NCBI GenBank assembly: GCA_028718465.1
Contig: JAQULX010000185.1
Location: forward strand, 1-6,191
Reading direction: 5' to 3'
DNA: 6,191 bases
From: Dehalococcoidales bacterium
Lineage (GTDB): Bacteria > Chloroflexota > Dehalococcoidia > Dehalococcoidales > UBA3254
Part shown: positions 1,021-6,191 of the stretch, piece after piece
Position numbering within the stretch: the first letter of the stretch is position 1
How the letters are laid out: every line of letters starts with the position of its first letter
Position numbers and translations under genes: made by a program
Notes under the pieces: model-generated
Seen by the model: only the letters and a program-made list of their open reading frames with translations
The model's database searches: none
Told to the model about the DNA's origin: nothing

Positions 1021-1431
1021 ATGGACGAATTTGTTACAAAATATTACCGCAGGCTACTCAGAACCGGATTCGAGTATGCCGGTGAAATCGAAAACCATGA
1101 CATATTTTTAGATTCGGTAGGCGAAAGGATCCGTATTTGCGGCCACAATACGAATAACTTCATGCACATATTTATCAAACTCTCGGAATGGAAGATTGAC
1201 GATATCAAATACCTCTGTACCTGTGATCCTACGGCTAATGTGGCAATAGAAATATTCTGTAAACTGGTCAAGGGCAAGACACTGAAAGAAGCTGCCGCGA
1301 TCACCCCGGACTCATTTTCCCGCGATCTGGGAAGCACCGAGGAGGAATTCCTGAAAAGGGCCGAGGGGATTATTGAACTGTTTCATAAAGGCTTGCAGCA
1401 GTACTATGACAAGCAGGCAAATCCCGGGTAA
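1021..1431 (+). CDS. NifU N-terminal/IscU-like Fe-S scaffold-type protein lacking the third cysteine
   Basis: This is a 136-residue protein, close to the length of IscU-type scaffolds (about 125-150). The match is in the order of elements: an N-terminal helix with a YYRRLL stretch, C40-G41 where scaffolds have their first cluster cysteine (CGD), LCTC (C66, C68) near the second cysteine, then LVKGKTLKEAAAIT (82-95), which closely resembles the conserved KGK...EA segment after it, and a C-terminal AEG..ELFHKGLQQYY helix. Scaffolds assemble [2Fe-2S]/[4Fe-4S] clusters on three cysteines and hand them to apoproteins. Here the aspartate after CG is a histidine (H42) and no cysteine follows C80, so the third ligand is missing. 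It may be a specialised or non-scaffold relative. The AGAAGG at 1004-1009 supports the ATG. Position beside a molybdenum hydroxylase, whose small subunit carries Fe-S clusters, makes a maturation role possible. The family call is by eye and moderate; the alternative is an unassigned small protein. Confidence 0.6.
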   Translation: MDEFVTKYYRRLLRTGFEYAGEIENHDIFLDSVGERIRICGHNTNNFMHIFIKLSEWKIDDIKYLCTCDPTANVAIEIFCKLVKGKTLKEAAAITPDSFSRDLGSTEEEFLKRAEGIIELFHKGLQQYYDKQANPG

Positions 1432-1848: not shown

Positions 1849-2760
1849 ATGGCGGCTTTTCCCAACCTGGACCCCAATAATCTGGTTATATTCTATATCG
1901 TAGTTACTGAGAAAAGTCTGACATCCGCCGCAGAGAAGCTGTTCCTTACTCAGCCGGCGGTCACTTACCGGTTGAAGTGCCTGGAAGAATACACCCGGGT
2001 TAAATTACTGGATATCAAGAAACATCAGGTGCGGCTTACTTCCTCCGGTGAAGAGGTATTTAAATACGCTCGCGAAATATATCAACAACTGGTAAGCGCT
2101 GACCGGTTCATTTCATCGATAAGAGAGTCCAATCTCAGGGTCGGCATAGCCGGCATCTACAGCACAATTGTGAGCCCGGTATTGAATACTATCTTTGAAG
2201 AGCGACAGTCCGGAGTCAAGCTGACCATCGAAAGCGGAAACGCTTTTGAGATGGTCCAGAATGTCATCGACTCCAATCTGGACCTGGCTATCGTCCCCCA
2301 GTTCAACTATGGATATGAAAACCTCACCCGTATCGAGGTCTCAGCCCCGATGAAGCTGATCTGTTTTACAGGAAGAGAACAGCCGATAAAGAAGCCGGTC
2401 CTGAGCTGGAAAGATTTCAATGATTACCCCTTCGTGGGCGGTTCCCAGACTTCGGTCATCCGCCGGATGGTGGAGGACCGGTTAAAAGGCGAAGGTATAG
2501 AAATACGGCCTCTGGCGGCGGAGGTAGCCAATGTCGAGTGGTGCATCGACCTGGTTGAACATGGCAAAGGCCTCACGTTTGCTTTTATGAATGATATCGA
2601 AAGGCAGATTAATGAAGGGCGGTTGAAAATAGTGCGCCTGGAAGATGATCTCTACCTGTCGGCAGAGGCCATAATGCCCAGCGGAATATTCATAAATCCG
2701 ATCATCGAACGGTTTATTACGATGGTGAAACAGGCTTTTAACAAGGCGGGCGGCAGTTAA
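1849..2760 (+). CDS. LysR-family transcriptional regulator
   Basis: The product is 303 residues, the normal length for the family. Residues about 10-70 form the winged helix-turn-helix, with the characteristic run SLTSAAEKLFLTQPAVTYRL (23-42) and a wing ending in RLTSSGEEV. A linker helix follows (about 70-95), and the two-lobed effector-binding domain starts at LRVGIAGIYST (96-106) and continues to the end, with the second-lobe EVANVEWCIDLVEHGKGLTF typical of the fold. Family members bind as tetramers to T-N11-A sites and respond to a small-molecule co-inducer. GGAGG at 1833-1837, 11 bases before the ATG, supports the start. The gene stands alone, downstream of a 417-bp gap and convergent with the flavoprotein/cytochrome operon; unlike classical members it is not divergent from an obvious target. 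Targets could be itself, the neighbouring operon or a distant locus; the effector is unknown. Confidence 0.93.
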   Translation: MAAFPNLDPNNLVIFYIVVTEKSLTSAAEKLFLTQPAVTYRLKCLEEYTRVKLLDIKKHQVRLTSSGEEVFKYAREIYQQLVSADRFISSIRESNLRVGIAGIYSTIVSPVLNTIFEERQSGVKLTIESGNAFEMVQNVIDSNLDLAIVPQFNYGYENLTRIEVSAPMKLICFTGREQPIKKPVLSWKDFNDYPFVGGSQTSVIRRMVEDRLKGEGIEIRPLAAEVANVEWCIDLVEHGKGLTFAFMNDIERQINEGRLKIVRLEDDLYLSAEAIMPSGIFINPIIERFITMVKQAFNKAGGS

Positions 2761-2770
2761 CTGCCGCCCG
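2747..2770. terminator. Perfect 24-bp palindrome, probable bidirectional terminator
   Basis: CGGGCGGCAGTT (2747-2758) is followed immediately by its exact reverse complement (2759-2770). As RNA it would form a very GC-rich 10-bp stem with a TTAA loop on either strand. It overlaps the last codons and the TAA stop of the LysR gene and ends six bases before the end of the convergent cytochrome b gene. No run of four or more Ts follows on the + side (TCCGGATT), and the minus side reads CCTTGTT, so termination may be inefficient or factor-assisted. Confidence 0.65.
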
Positions 2771-2776
2771 TCCGGA

Positions 2777-3928
2777 TTACTCTTTCGATTCCTCGACTTT
2801 TTCCATCAATTCATCATATTCGCGGCGGAACCACTGCCTGTATTTGTTCTTCAACATCTTGCCGGTAAACATGACGGTATTGACCGGGAATGTGGTAGTC
2901 GCCAGGTGCCCGTAATACATATGGACGATGATAATAAAACTGATAGCCAGGACTGCCTCATCCCGGTGAGCTGCGGCAGCTACTGCGATAGCCCAGCCGG
3001 GCCAGTACTGGCTGAAGAAAGCCGGCACCATCATGATAAAGCCGGTTATCATCATTACCGGCATGCCCCAGAAAATGGCCCAGTAATCGATCTTCTGACC
3101 GTACTGGAAACGCTCATATTCAGGTTCATGCTTGTAAAAGCCGAAGATCCAAAGGAAGGTATGCAGCATGTCCTTGAGGTCTTTCATGTTGGGGACCATG
3201 GCCGTGGGCAGTTTACGTTTTACCACGATGCCGTGAATGACATAGATAATGTGGTAAATGCAGACGGCAATCATACCGAAGGCGGCAGCATCATGCACTA
3301 GCCGCAGCAGATCAGGTCCGCCGAAGAGATTGGTGAAGAAGGCAAAGGTTGGCCAATCGGGGAAACCACGCAGAACACCGGTTACGGCCAGGATGATGAA
3401 GGTTATAAACAGGCCGTAGTGCTGAATGCGTTGATGAACGTCGAAACGTTTAATGTATTCTCCTTCAACCCTGTCCGCAGTGATATTGGGATTTCTCGGA
3501 GAACGGTCTAACAACTCCAGGAGCTCGAATCTTGAATCATTATCCGGCTCAGCAGGTTCGGGGCGGTTCCTGTTAATGAACCGGCGAATTACTTCCAGGA
3601 TAATAATAACGGTTACAGGAATCATCACTCCGGCTGTCAGTGCGAAGAAGAACCAGCGTGTAATAAGAACCGCAATATGGGAAAGATCGCTGCTGGGGAC
3701 AAAGTTGTAATAAGCCGCTTCGGGGAAGATATGGAACGGTTGGATAGGCAGAATATGCAACAGCGCCAGTACCAGGATTACTACCTCTACCAGAATGATG
3801 CCCACGACGAGTGGAAAGTAATATCCGGGCAAGCGTTTATCAGCGGGGCCTGGCCTTAAATGCGCCCCTGTACTATTTCGGCCTTTTGAATATTCCATAC
3901 CGGCTGCTCTATTCCCTTCTTTTGCCAA
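2777..3928 (-). CDS. Cytochrome b membrane subunit, formate dehydrogenase/hydrogenase gamma-subunit type
   Basis: This 383-residue integral membrane protein has six predicted helices at about 37-60, 86-115, 170-187, 210-232, 281-304 and 320-340. The last four match the cytochrome b core of formate dehydrogenase gamma subunits, which carries two b haems and passes electrons between a peripheral enzyme and quinone. Signature stretches are RFDVHQRIQHYGLF (161-174), LVHDAAAFGMIAVCIYHIIY (210-229), KIDYWAIFWGMPVMMITG (279-296), and HRDEAVLAISFIIIVHMYYG (321-340), ending in FPVNTVMFTGKM. Candidate haem histidines are H165/H170, H212, H226/H232, H321, H336 and H341. The N-terminal 120 residues add two helices and a charged, proline-rich linker not present in the short E. 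coli-type subunit. The frame starts at TTG, backed by an AAGGGGAGG seven bases upstream; an ATG ten codons later has a weaker site. It lies 24 bp behind the flavoprotein gene, implying one transcript and a shared redox task. Confidence 0.88.
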   Translation of the reverse strand: MAKEGNRAAGMEYSKGRNSTGAHLRPGPADKRLPGYYFPLVVGIILVEVVILVLALLHILPIQPFHIFPEAAYYNFVPSSDLSHIAVLITRWFFFALTAGVMIPVTVIIILEVIRRFINRNRPEPAEPDNDSRFELLELLDRSPRNPNITADRVEGEYIKRFDVHQRIQHYGLFITFIILAVTGVLRGFPDWPTFAFFTNLFGGPDLLRLVHDAAAFGMIAVCIYHIIYVIHGIVVKRKLPTAMVPNMKDLKDMLHTFLWIFGFYKHEPEYERFQYGQKIDYWAIFWGMPVMMITGFIMMVPAFFSQYWPGWAIAVAAAAHRDEAVLAISFIIIVHMYYGHLATTTFPVNTVMFTGKMLKNKYRQWFRREYDELMEKVEESKE

Positions 3929-3935
3929 CTGGATG

Positions 3936-3944
3936 CCTCCCCTT
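3936..3944 (-). promoter_or_regulatory. Ribosome-binding site fixing the TTG start of the cytochrome b gene
   Basis: On the minus strand AAGGGGAGG (3944 down to 3936) lies seven bases before TTG (3928-3926) in the short gap after the flavoprotein stop. The strength and spacing favour TTG over the in-frame ATG at codon 11. Confidence 0.7.
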
Positions 3945-3952
3945 CCTGCCTC

Positions 3953-6043
3953 TTATACCTCATGCCCTGCTTTCGCCCCGGCGTAGATGGCGTCTACCAT
4001 AATATCGGGTTCCGGTTTAAAACAGCTACCGACGGTATAAATTTCAGGAACGATGTCTTTCAACTTCTCGACCATGTCCAGGTTCTGCTTTAAGAGTGTG
4101 GAAGGCAGTACCGTATCAGCCACGATGGTTTTGGTTTCACCCTCTTTGGTGGTAATAACCAGGCCATCATCCGTGACTCTGACGAATTTGGCGCCGGCAT
4201 AGAGGACCACACCCTTTCTCTTGAACCAGGGCATCAGGAACTCTCTGTCATCGACTGTCATGCCCTCAGCCCAAACTTCGCCGGGATTGACGATAGTCAC
4301 CTTGCGGCCGCGCTTGGTCAGGAATTCTCCCAGTTCGCAGGCGTGATGTTCTCCACCCATGATAACCACTTTCTTCCCGATAGGCATGGAGAACGGGACA
4401 TATTTGCTGCCCCAGGCAGCCAGCTTGGGTCCGACCATGTATAACAGGGCATCCAGTTTAGTCAGAATCATGACATTGCGTTTATTGATGCCGGGGATTT
4501 CCGGGATTTTCACAATACCACCGGTAGCCACGATAACCGCATCCGGTTTTTCCTGTTTGACAAGTTCAGGCGTGACCATGGTCTTCAATTTTAAATTCAC
4601 TCCGGCTTTCTGCATCTGGAGCTTGTACCAGCGAATACAATCCAGAATGACATCCACCTCCAGGTCTTTGACCAGAGCGGCGATGGGCAGCAGACCGCCC
4701 AGCTTGGAATGTTTGTCATACAGAGTAACATCATGCCCTCTCAGGGCAGAGCTCAAGGCTGCCTGCATACCGCCGGGGCCTCCGCCGATGACCATAACTT
4801 TCTTTTTCCTGGCAGCCGGCTGGTTGGCTAATACCGCTTCGCGTCCGCAATGAGGATTCACACGGCATTCCAGAGGCCTATTCTTGTTACGCACATCCAT
4901 ACAGTAAACGCAGCCCTGGCAGGGGCGGACATCTTCCACGTGGCCGGAAAATACCTTGTTAGGCAGATCGTGGTCGGCCAGCAGACGCCGCACCATCGGG
5001 ATGAAGTCCATGCGGCCTTCTCTGAGGAATCTCTCTCCCAGGTCCCAATTCAAACGTCCGGCTGCCCAGACGGGCACCTTCACTCCGCCCTTTTTAACCG
5101 CCATGGTAAGGGTGGAAGTGGCGCCATGGCCTTTGCGGCTCCAATCCAGATCTTTGAGCATGTCGAACACCAGTTGATTCGGTTCAGGATAGAACAGCCG
5201 GTCGGGCTGCAGCAGGCCTTCGCGGTGCCCGTAGATATGTGCGCGGCACTGGATTGCATCGGCGCCGGCTTTCTCCATTTCCAGGGCCAGCGCAACGCCT
5301 TCCTCCATCGTGGTCGCTTTGGGATGATTATATTCACGGATATTTATCAGACAGGTCACTGTGAAGTCCGGGCTGGTGCGCCTCTTGGTTTCCCTGATGA
5401 CCTCGGCCATAAACCTCGCCCGGTTTTCGAAAGACTGGGGCCCGTATTCATCTTCTCTTTTGTTCCAGATCCTGGACAGGAAGGTGTTGATCTGATGGCA
5501 GGTACCGCCGTTGATTTCCACGCCGTCGAAACCGGCTTTCCATGCCCGCACACCGGCCTCTACCCAGATATCAATCATTTCTTTTATTTCGTCATGAGTC
5601 ATGGCGCGCGGCACGGCGAAGTCCGGTCCGGGCAGTTCCTCCTGAGTTAAAGCGGAGGCGGCTTTGGTATCCCGTTTGGGCAGCAAACCGGTAGGATTCC
5701 AGGGGCCGGCATGCTGGAACTGGACCATGATGGGGCAGCCGTGCTTGTGGACAACTTCGGCCAGTTTGGTATAGCTGGGGATCTTGTCATCATTGTCGAG
5801 GCGGAACTGGGCTTCTACATGCTGACAGGCCAGGGGGAATTCAACGCCGCAAGACTCAACGATGATCATGCCTACGCCGCCTTTGGCGAGGGCTTCATAA
5901 TAGGCCAGGGCCCTATCGCCCACATAACCCGTCTCATGCTCAATATAAGATGTGCCGTTAGCGGTCTTGATAATACGGTTTTTGGTTTTGATGCGGCCTA
6001 TCTGGCCCGGTGACATCAATTTTTCAAATCTGCCTGCGCTCAT
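3953..6043 (-). CDS. Old-yellow-enzyme/2,4-dienoyl-CoA-reductase-type FMN, [4Fe-4S], FAD oxidoreductase
   Basis: The 696-residue product has the FadH/trimethylamine-dehydrogenase architecture and length. Residues 1-365 form the FMN-binding TIM barrel (VQFQHAG 107-113, GFDGVEINGG 171-180, NKREDEYG 194-201, WAAGR 326-330, LLADHDLPNKV 354-364). A [4Fe-4S] motif follows, C375-x2-C378-x2-C381-x11-C393, leading into RVNP. The FAD domain starts at VMVIGGGPGG (416-425) with D443 at the end of the second strand. Relatives reduce or oxidise activated C=C bonds of enoyl-CoA, aromatic-CoA or steroid substrates, or demethylate amines. Two departures are notable. H183 aligns with the catalytic tyrosine of FadH. 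In the second nucleotide-binding fold the motif reads GGEHHA (563-568), losing two of three glycines, as if NAD(P)H binding were weakened. AGGAGG (6052-6057) eight bases before the ATG fixes the start. The next gene is a cytochrome b, a possible electron partner. The substrate is unknown. Confidence 0.9.
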   Translation of the reverse strand: MSAGRFEKLMSPGQIGRIKTKNRIIKTANGTSYIEHETGYVGDRALAYYEALAKGGVGMIIVESCGVEFPLACQHVEAQFRLDNDDKIPSYTKLAEVVHKHGCPIMVQFQHAGPWNPTGLLPKRDTKAASALTQEELPGPDFAVPRAMTHDEIKEMIDIWVEAGVRAWKAGFDGVEINGGTCHQINTFLSRIWNKREDEYGPQSFENRARFMAEVIRETKRRTSPDFTVTCLINIREYNHPKATTMEEGVALALEMEKAGADAIQCRAHIYGHREGLLQPDRLFYPEPNQLVFDMLKDLDWSRKGHGATSTLTMAVKKGGVKVPVWAAGRLNWDLGERFLREGRMDFIPMVRRLLADHDLPNKVFSGHVEDVRPCQGCVYCMDVRNKNRPLECRVNPHCGREAVLANQPAARKKKVMVIGGGPGGMQAALSSALRGHDVTLYDKHSKLGGLLPIAALVKDLEVDVILDCIRWYKLQMQKAGVNLKLKTMVTPELVKQEKPDAVIVATGGIVKIPEIPGINKRNVMILTKLDALLYMVGPKLAAWGSKYVPFSMPIGKKVVIMGGEHHACELGEFLTKRGRKVTIVNPGEVWAEGMTVDDREFLMPWFKRKGVVLYAGAKFVRVTDDGLVITTKEGETKTIVADTVLPSTLLKQNLDMVEKLKDIVPEIYTVGSCFKPEPDIMVDAIYAGAKAGHEV

Positions 6044-6051
6044 TGACTTTG

Positions 6052-6057
6052 CCTCCT
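6052..6057 (-). promoter_or_regulatory. Strong ribosome-binding site of the flavoprotein gene
   Basis: A perfect AGGAGG on the minus strand sits eight bases upstream of the ATG at 6043-6041. It confirms the start and suggests efficient translation. Confidence 0.85.
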
Positions 6058-6092
6058 GTATATTTATAAACGGGAATCATTTATTCAAGACT

Positions 6093-6121
6093 ATTTTAAC
6101 ATTATGTGCAGCGCATGACTA
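6093..6121 (-). promoter_or_regulatory. Candidate promoter of the flavoprotein-cytochrome b operon
   Basis: Read on the minus strand, TAGTCA (6121-6116) and TAAAAT (6098-6093) are separated by 17 bases and match four and five of six sigma-70 consensus positions. Transcription would start near 6086, giving a leader of about 43 bases. The -35 box falls inside an inverted repeat, so a bound protein could block or assist polymerase. Confidence 0.4.
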
Positions 6122-6144
6122 ATTCATACAGTCACGGTTGCACA
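6105..6144. promoter_or_regulatory. Nested dyad, candidate operator upstream of the flavoprotein operon
   Basis: Two inverted repeats share nearly the same centre: outer TGTGCA (6105-6110)/TGCACA (6139-6144) and inner TGACT (6116-6120)/AGTCA (6130-6134) around a nine-base spacer. The unpaired segments between the arms are five and four bases. ACAGTCA is also repeated directly at 6128-6134 and 6142-6148. The dyad covers the proposed -35 box, so a transcription factor site is likely. The inner dyad does not have the centred T-N11-A form of a classical LysR box. Confidence 0.45.
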
Positions 6145-6191
6145 GTCATCCAGCCTTGTGTATAAGGAGATTTTATGAAACTATAAAAAAC

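What the first reader, a model, noticed from the sequence alone, without database searches (positions are those of the whole stretch)
2777..6043. Two-gene unit coupling an ene-reductase-type flavoprotein to a quinone-side cytochrome b
Seen: a FadH/trimethylamine-dehydrogenase-type protein gene is followed 24 bp later by a formate-dehydrogenase-gamma-type cytochrome b gene, both with good ribosome-binding sites and with no other gene between them. Known: soluble family members take electrons from NAD(P)H or give them to ETF, while this cytochrome b class normally docks to a ferredoxin-like beta subunit. Inference: the flavoprotein's own [4Fe-4S] cluster may pass electrons directly to or from the cytochrome, making a membrane-bound C=C reductase (respiratory) or dehydrogenase (quinone-reducing). 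I do not know a described enzyme with this composition.
Basis: partly seen in the sequence, partly recalled or inferred. Interest (0 to 1): 0.72.

Follow-up and report, generated by a model that had tools for sequence, protein, structure and literature searches.

The report
Ene-reductase-type flavoprotein paired with membrane cytochrome
In an uncultured bacterium, most likely a Chloroflexota, a flavin enzyme of the ene-reductase kind shares a two-gene unit with a membrane cytochrome b; relatives suggest that this cytochrome is an exchangeable membrane adaptor that may here connect the enzyme to the respiratory chain, but this is untested.

Summary
A 696-aa FadH/NCR-like flavoprotein (3953-6043, minus) is followed after 24 bp by a 383-aa FdnI-like cytochrome b (2777-3928, minus). 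The unit ends at a strong bidirectional hairpin (2745-2772). The [4Fe-4S] cysteines are invariant in 127 of 127 aligned sequences and the four haem histidines in 130 of 130.

The pairing is narrow. In the relatives read outside the window's own clade the genes live apart. The cytochrome's 57-60% relatives (6 genomes) sit in a molybdoenzyme operon and a more distant one beside SdhA/FrdA. The flavoprotein's seven closest placed relatives (54-69%) have no cytochrome; six sit beside an Ldh_1-type dehydrogenase. Inside the clade, two further contigs appear to carry both genes, judged only from equal contig lengths.

Best reading: an exchangeable quinone-linked cytochrome b adaptor was recruited by this flavoprotein in one lineage, probably making a quinone-coupled enzyme. 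Direct cluster-to-haem transfer is inference. 'C=C reductase' is weakened: the OYE catalytic tyrosine is histidine in 127 of 127. A soluble NAD(P)H-dependent flavoprotein merely co-transcribed with the cytochrome is not excluded.

The parts
3953..6043 (-). FadH/NCR/TMADH-type flavoprotein, 696 aa: FMN-binding OYE barrel, [4Fe-4S] segment, FAD/pyridine-nucleotide Rossmann domains
   Evidence: Pfam, NCBIfam, PDB sequence matches
4865..4921 (-). [4Fe-4S] ligand segment C375-x2-C378-x2-C381-x11-C393
   Evidence: All four Cys in 127 of 127 aligned sequences; ligand role by analogy with FadH and TMADH, recalled
5495..5497 (-). His183 codon, at the place of the tyrosine of FadH and NCR
   Evidence: Alignments; His in 127 of 127
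2777..3928 (-). FdnI-like cytochrome b, 383 aa, TTG start, six predicted TM helices (two N-terminal extra plus four FdnI-like)
2921..3421 (-). Span of the four haem-ligand histidine codons: H170 (3419-3421), H212 (3293-3295), H321 (2966-2968), H336 (2921-2923)
   Evidence: 130 of 130 aligned sequences; all four align with FdnI histidines; the ligand roles are recalled
2745..2772 (.). 12-bp-stem hairpin between convergent LysR and cytochrome genes, probable bidirectional terminator
   Evidence: -26.2 kcal/mol, z -4.85 on the + strand; -25.5, z -4.82 on the - strand. The terminator scan did not list it
6093..6121 (-). Promoter-like match TAGTCA-17-TAAAAT upstream of the flavoprotein (weak)
   Evidence: 2 promoter-like sites found in 2600-6191, mean 3.5 in shuffles

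Best explanation
The two genes form one terminated operon encoding a membrane-attached, quinone-linked flavoenzyme. The cytochrome belongs to a family of two-haem membrane adaptors that in other Chloroflexota sit beside a molybdoenzyme module or a succinate dehydrogenase/fumarate reductase flavoprotein. In one lineage it was recruited by an OYE-superfamily flavoprotein. The flavoprotein stays on the cytoplasmic side. One-electron steps run between the quinone pool, the two haems, the [4Fe-4S] cluster and FMN, and FMN reduces or oxidises an unknown organic substrate, most likely a CoA-thioester or carboxylic-acid C=C/C-C couple. Shown: gene order, terminator-like hairpin, intact cluster and haem ligands, charge pattern of the loops, swapping of the cytochrome's neighbours among relatives. 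Inferred: physical complex, direct cluster-haem transfer, direction, substrate.
For: 24-bp spacing and same strand; hairpin directly after the cytochrome. Cluster Cys 127 of 127 and haem His 130 of 130. Loops with 7-11 K/R (residues 1-38, 112-170, 237-282, 344-383) alternate with loops with 0-1 K/R, which places H170 and H336 at the cytoplasmic end. Members of the cytochrome family lie directly after a Mo enzyme in 6 of 6 genomes (the Mo N-terminus is present in 5 and shows no Tat signal by eye) and directly before an SdhA/FrdA that passes the TIGR01812 cut-off in L006, which fits an exchangeable adaptor for cytoplasmic partners. Two other contigs appear to hold both genes: P0009 with P0128 (10,157 bp, both jgi) and P0010 with P0123 (23,302 bp, both ncbi); 0.04 equal lengths expected above 9 kb. 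The cytochromes of both and of the window fall in one 9-member clade (support 0.987) and the flavoproteins in one 17-member clade (support 1.0). [quoted passage not shown]
Against: No adjacency outside the clade: 0 of 14 flavoprotein stretches and 0 of 9 cytochrome loci. The two supporting contigs are known only by length; gene order on them was not seen, and the 9-kb threshold was chosen after the fact: without it 3 equal lengths stand against 0.92 expected (3 or more in about 6% of controls), above 5 kb 2 against 0.19 (2 or more in 1.6%). The second Rossmann domain is retained (G563, with A568 for G), so NAD(P)H use is not excluded. Clade-specific substitutions near the cluster (V379, C399) and in the nucleotide domain (A568, N586) do not cluster significantly (scan p 0.06 to 0.25 by window width). 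Structure models were too poor to use (mean pLDDT 64.7 and 66.9) and no complex was predicted. The characterised relatives in the passages read use soluble donors.
Confidence: 0.45

Rival explanations
1. Co-transcribed but not a complex: the flavoprotein is a soluble NAD(P)H-dependent FadH-like reductase and the cytochrome serves another enzyme, for example a molybdoenzyme module encoded elsewhere in the genome.
For: The 57-60% relatives of the cytochrome lie after the Mo enzyme in 6 of 6 genomes, and a 65% relative (P0025) appears to share a 22,011-bp contig with that Mo enzyme. The seven closest placed relatives of the flavoprotein (54-69%) have no cytochrome beside them; six have an Ldh_1 gene. 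The nucleotide-binding domain is retained.
Against: The unit is closed by a hairpin and holds only these two genes in the part seen; the pair seems kept in at least two further contigs whose cytochromes are only 67% identical to the window's.
Confidence: 0.33
2. A third, separately encoded electron carrier (Fer4 subunit, ferredoxin or ETF) bridges flavoprotein and cytochrome, as in formate dehydrogenase-N or in TMADH-ETF.
For: FdnI-type cytochromes normally dock a Fer4 beta subunit, and TMADH gives electrons to ETF (recalled). A Fer4 protein is encoded in the relatives' Mo operon. Only 148 bp upstream of the flavoprotein is visible.
Against: No Fer4 or ETF gene in the window, and the unit seems to end after the cytochrome.
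Confidence: 0.17
3. Chance neighbours without functional link.
For: No adjacency in the relatives read outside the clade.
Against: 24-bp gap, shared strand, hairpin after the second gene, and two more probable co-occurrences.
Confidence: 0.05

Closest known systems
2-Naphthoyl-CoA reductase NCR (PDB 6qkg) and other type III aryl-CoA reductases
   Same: FMN + FAD + [4Fe-4S] OYE-superfamily flavoprotein, best PDB sequence match; [quoted passage not shown]
   Different: Expressed as single proteins, no cytochrome mentioned in the passages read; NCR keeps the tyrosine that is His183 here. That 6qkg is the naphthoyl-CoA enzyme is recalled; the PDB line says only NCR
E. coli 2,4-dienoyl-CoA reductase FadH (1ps9) and clostridial 2-enoate reductase FldZ
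   Same: Domain order and cluster motif; FldZ assayed with NADH (PMC5882074, passages)
   Different: NAD(P)H-linked (FadH recalled), no membrane partner in what was read; tyrosine present in FadH at the place of His183
Trimethylamine and histamine dehydrogenases (1djn, 3k30, 6de6)
   Same: Same superfamily and a cluster that hands out single electrons (recalled)
   Different: More distant (92-121 bits); acceptor is ETF or a soluble carrier (recalled)
Formate dehydrogenase-N gamma subunit FdnI (1kqf_C)
   Same: Four-helix two-haem b module aligned over residues 161-381, with the four aligned histidines kept
   Different: Window protein has two extra N-terminal helices, no Fer4 beta subunit beside it in the window, and a partner with no evident export signal; scores 50.9 bits against a 115.85 cut-off of TIGR01583
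ETF:menaquinone oxidoreductase of syntrophs (EMO)
   Same: Concept of a cytochrome b joining acyl-CoA/C=C redox chemistry to menaquinone (recalled)
   Different: Different proteins (HdrD/NarI-like fusion plus ETF; recalled)

Membership tests
FadH/NCR/TMADH-type flavoproteins (OYE superfamily) | Oxidored_FMN domain followed by Pyr_redox domain | tested here: met
   PF00724 1.8e-50, PF07992 7e-24
FadH/NCR/TMADH-type flavoproteins (OYE superfamily) | Four-cysteine [4Fe-4S] motif between barrel and FAD domain | tested here: met
   C375, C378, C381, C393 each 127 of 127
Ene-reductases with the OYE catalytic tyrosine | Active-site tyrosine proton donor (FadH Tyr166, recalled) | tested here: not met
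   aligned position is His183, His in 127 of 127
Curated C=C reductase equivalogs (BaiCD, bilirubin reductase, mycofactocin OYE) | Score above NCBIfam cut-off | tested here: not met
   354.9 bits against 793.15 (TIGR03997), 316.9 against 750 (NF045599), 282.7 against 825 (NF041087)
NAD(P)H dependence | NAD(P)H as electron donor | not testable with these tools
   second Rossmann motif present with A568 in place of G; no assay possible
FdnI-type cytochrome b | Four haem-ligating histidines | tested here: met
   H170, H212, H321, H336 each 130 of 130; ligand role recalled
FdnI-type cytochrome b | Score above the FdnI equivalog cut-off | tested here: not met
   50.9 against 115.85 (TIGR01583), 51.6 against 339 (NF007558)
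FdnI-type cytochrome b | Dedicated Fer4 beta subunit in the operon | tested here: inconclusive
   none in the window; downstream end closed by a hairpin, but only 148 bp upstream visible
Complex of flavoprotein and cytochrome | Conserved adjacency in relatives | tested here: inconclusive
   0 of 14 flavoprotein stretches and 0 of 9 cytochrome loci outside the clade; 2 probable co-occurrences inside it, from contig lengths only

The most novel reading that the evidence does not exclude
A respiratory (quinone-coupled) OYE-superfamily flavoenzyme in which the flavoprotein's own [4Fe-4S] cluster exchanges electrons directly with a diheme cytochrome b, with no ferredoxin-like subunit, built by recruiting an exchangeable cytochrome adaptor that elsewhere sits beside Mo enzymes and SdhA/FrdA, and acting on a substrate through a His in place of the canonical Tyr.
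Probability: 0.38. Interest if true: 0.66.

Novelty: new variant of a known kind. Interest (0 to 1): 0.45.

Why it matters
If true, members of the large family of FMN/FAD/[4Fe-4S] ene-reductase-like enzymes, treated as soluble and NAD(P)H-, ETF- or ferredoxin-linked, could be wired to the quinone pool, so reduction or oxidation of unsaturated acids or thioesters could conserve energy in uncultured Chloroflexota. It also suggests that one cytochrome b family serves as a swappable membrane adaptor for at least three catalytic types, which can be tested by neighbourhood mining.

Tried and rejected
Own genome: none held. Viral contigs: no relative of either protein. Flavoprotein in wider genome samples: rang in 3 of 393 genomes of the class at E<=1e-170, identities 43-47%; in 0 of 400 of the phylum. 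In both only two candidates per genome were scored and the centre genome itself did not pass, so they say little about absence. Cytochrome: class-wide 27 of 393 genomes at E<=1e-30, of which only G003 at the level of the close relatives, most others matching only the FdnI-like part; phylum-wide 1 of 400 at E<=1e-70, the centre G003 itself. AlphaFold models of both proteins were poor; Foldseek against PDB with the cytochrome model gave 0 of 169 matches at E<=0.001, so no structural argument is made. Rfam: no family in the window at gathering scores. Clustering of 21 clade-specific flavoprotein substitutions: scan p 0.060, 0.059 and 0.25 for widths of 25, 41 and 60 residues, not used. First contig-length cross-match lacked one hand-entered value; repeated in full. 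There, two further equal lengths (3,399 bp for P0016/P0231; 2,748 bp for P0135/P0262) come from different sources and were taken as chance.

Considered and not adopted: aryl-CoA dearomatisation like NCR (its step lies far below menaquinol, so quinol does not fit as donor); naming the enzyme a fumarate- or cinnamate-type reductase (no substrate evidence).
Full report
What is there. The window carries, on the plus strand, the end of a xanthine-dehydrogenase-family molybdenum hydroxylase (1-924), a NifU_N-like protein (1021-1431) and a LysR regulator (1849-2760); on the minus strand the flavoprotein (3953-6043) and the cytochrome b (2777-3928). The two minus-strand genes are 24 bp apart. A 12-bp-stem hairpin at 2745-2772 lies at the end of LysR, just before the convergent cytochrome stop, and folds far better than shuffles on both strands (z -4.85 and -4.82), so the unit very probably ends after the cytochrome; the terminator scan did not list it. 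Upstream of the flavoprotein 148 bp remain. All three frames there hold stops, and what precedes them does not resemble the Ldh_1 ends printed alongside, by eye; the end of some other upstream gene cannot be excluded. One weak promoter-like site lies there.

The flavoprotein. It has the FadH/NCR/TMADH architecture, is closest in PDB to NCR and FadH and falls far below the cut-offs of curated C=C-reductase families. In an alignment of the window protein, the other 119 homologues listed (120 of 3967 matches were listed) and seven genome loci, 127 rows in all, the four cluster cysteines are invariant, and the place of the FadH and NCR tyrosine is histidine (H183) in 127 of 127. The aligned family therefore departs from the textbook ene-reductase proton donor, and a C=C reduction remains an inference.

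The cytochrome. Residues 161-381 align with FdnI. Four histidines are invariant in 130 of 130 rows: the window, the 120 proteins listed (of 228) and nine loci, three of these core part only. A hydropathy scan gave seven peaks, the last two overlapping and read as one, so six helices, with both termini and the K/R-rich long loops inside. With H170 and H336 at the inner end and H212 and H321 at the outer end, a partner in the cytoplasm would meet the inner haem. The N-terminal part is a separate small ORF in the distant loci L006 and L008 and a separate match in the genome of L009.

Relatives of the cytochrome. Nine loci were found in GTDB genomes with two peptide patterns. In the six at 57-60% identity (G001-G005, G007; 6 of 31 genomes of one family) the gene lies directly after a molybdopterin oxidoreductase of 90-94% identity to that of L003. 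Fer4 and NrfD genes precede it in 5 of 6, L001 being cut off before them. UbiA and radical-SAM genes follow in 6 of 6 and a UbiE-like gene in 5 of 6, L002 being cut off (Pfam names from L003). G004 is split over two contigs (L098, L004). In L006 (41%) an SdhA/FrdA follows directly (783 bits against a 567 cut-off). In L008 and L009 (36 and 42%) fumarase and UbiA precede the gene and a UbiE-like gene follows; L009 also has Iso_dh and Ldh_1 genes. None of the nine loci encodes a relative of the flavoprotein (0 of 9; L004 and L006 are short contigs).

Relatives of the flavoprotein. In the order of G003, 32 of 156 genomes have a match at E<=1e-100; two of them (G001, G004) hold 68-69% relatives. 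Fifteen stretches were fetched, 14 of them holding a flavoprotein gene: the seven closest (54-69%) and seven with relatives at 41-44%. A relative of the window cytochrome occurs in 0 of 14, also by tblastn at E<=1e-3 (L056 is a 3.6-kb contig). Of the seven closest, six have an Ldh_1-family gene next to the flavoprotein, on the opposite strand in L090. So in these genomes the two genes are not linked, although G001 and G004 hold both in different places.

Pairing inside the clade. The protein database gives contig lengths but no context. Comparing the three lists of 120, cytochrome P0009 and flavoprotein P0128 share a contig length of 10,157 bp, and P0010 and P0123 share 23,302 bp, with the same source in each pair. 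Above 9 kb 0.04 equal lengths are expected, and two or more were seen in 0.05% of the jittered controls; above 5 kb 0.19 expected and 1.6%; with no threshold three are seen, 0.92 expected and about 6% (thresholds set after the fact). The cytochromes concerned group with the window in a 9-member clade and the flavoproteins in a 17-member clade. P0025, outside the cytochrome clade, shares a 22,011-bp length with a Mo enzyme. So the association looks like an innovation of one lineage. This is indirect: gene order on those contigs was not read, and 14 of the 17 flavoprotein clade members gave no information.

Mechanism. The genes around the cytochrome family in relatives, chiefly a Mo enzyme and in one case SdhA/FrdA, suggest a general link between cytoplasmic redox enzymes and quinone, with UbiA- and UbiE-like genes beside it in eight of the nine loci, UbiE cut off in one. 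Recruited by the flavoprotein, it would connect [4Fe-4S]/FMN chemistry to the quinone pool. [quoted passage not shown] these enzymes have no cytochrome in the passages read. Direction is open. Menaquinol (about -74 mV, recalled) could reduce ordinary enoyl-CoA (about -10 mV, recalled) but not an aryl-CoA, whose naphthoyl step is given as about -493 mV.

Literature. Searches for OYE, enoate reductase or FadH terms with quinone, cytochrome b or respiration terms listed no paper whose title or abstract start describes such an enzyme: 8 of 8 papers seen, 3 of 3, 15 of 51, 8 of 8, 12 of 187. Searches found no papers. The library holds open-licence papers only. A Chloroflexi single-cell genome paper says that Dehalococcoides and Dehalogenimonas make no quinones (PMC5736913, passages); the UbiA/UbiE-like genes beside the cytochrome suggest that these relatives may differ, which was not tested.

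Verdict. Observation confirmed. Interpretation partly supported: plausible and interesting, but clade-restricted and without direct evidence for a complex. That the organism is a Chloroflexota is inferred from the nearest placed relatives, which are Dehalococcoidales and other Chloroflexota MAGs.

Noticed in passing
L003:6004-13972 and the equivalent in L002, L005, L007: Conserved operon Fer4 - NrfD - molybdopterin oxidoreductase without evident Tat signal - cytochrome b - UbiA - radical SAM/SPASM - UbiE-like methyltransferase (L002 cut off within the radical SAM gene) in Dehalococcoidales-like genomes; function unknown.
   Followed up: partly
L006:134-3086: FdnI-like cytochrome b, split into a small N-terminal ORF and a core, directly followed by an SdhA/FrdA: an unusual possible anchor for a succinate dehydrogenase or fumarate reductase.
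   Followed up: partly
L085, L056, L086, L088, L089, L090: FadH-like flavoprotein genes beside one or two Ldh_1-type dehydrogenase genes in 6 of the 7 closest relatives read: a possible two-step 2-hydroxyacid pathway.
   Followed up: partly
window 5495-5497 (-): OYE catalytic tyrosine replaced by histidine in a family of FadH-like proteins (127 of 127 aligned).
   Followed up: partly
window 1021-1431 (+): NifU_N-like 136-aa protein directly after a xanthine-dehydrogenase-family gene (PF01592 E 1e-4, 22.9 bits against a cut-off of 22).
   Followed up: no
L089:7986-15246, L092:7588-15557, L094:423-9998: Flavoproteins of this family near genes that match the Fer4 and Mo-enzyme proteins of L003, with NrfD in L089 and L092.
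   Followed up: partly
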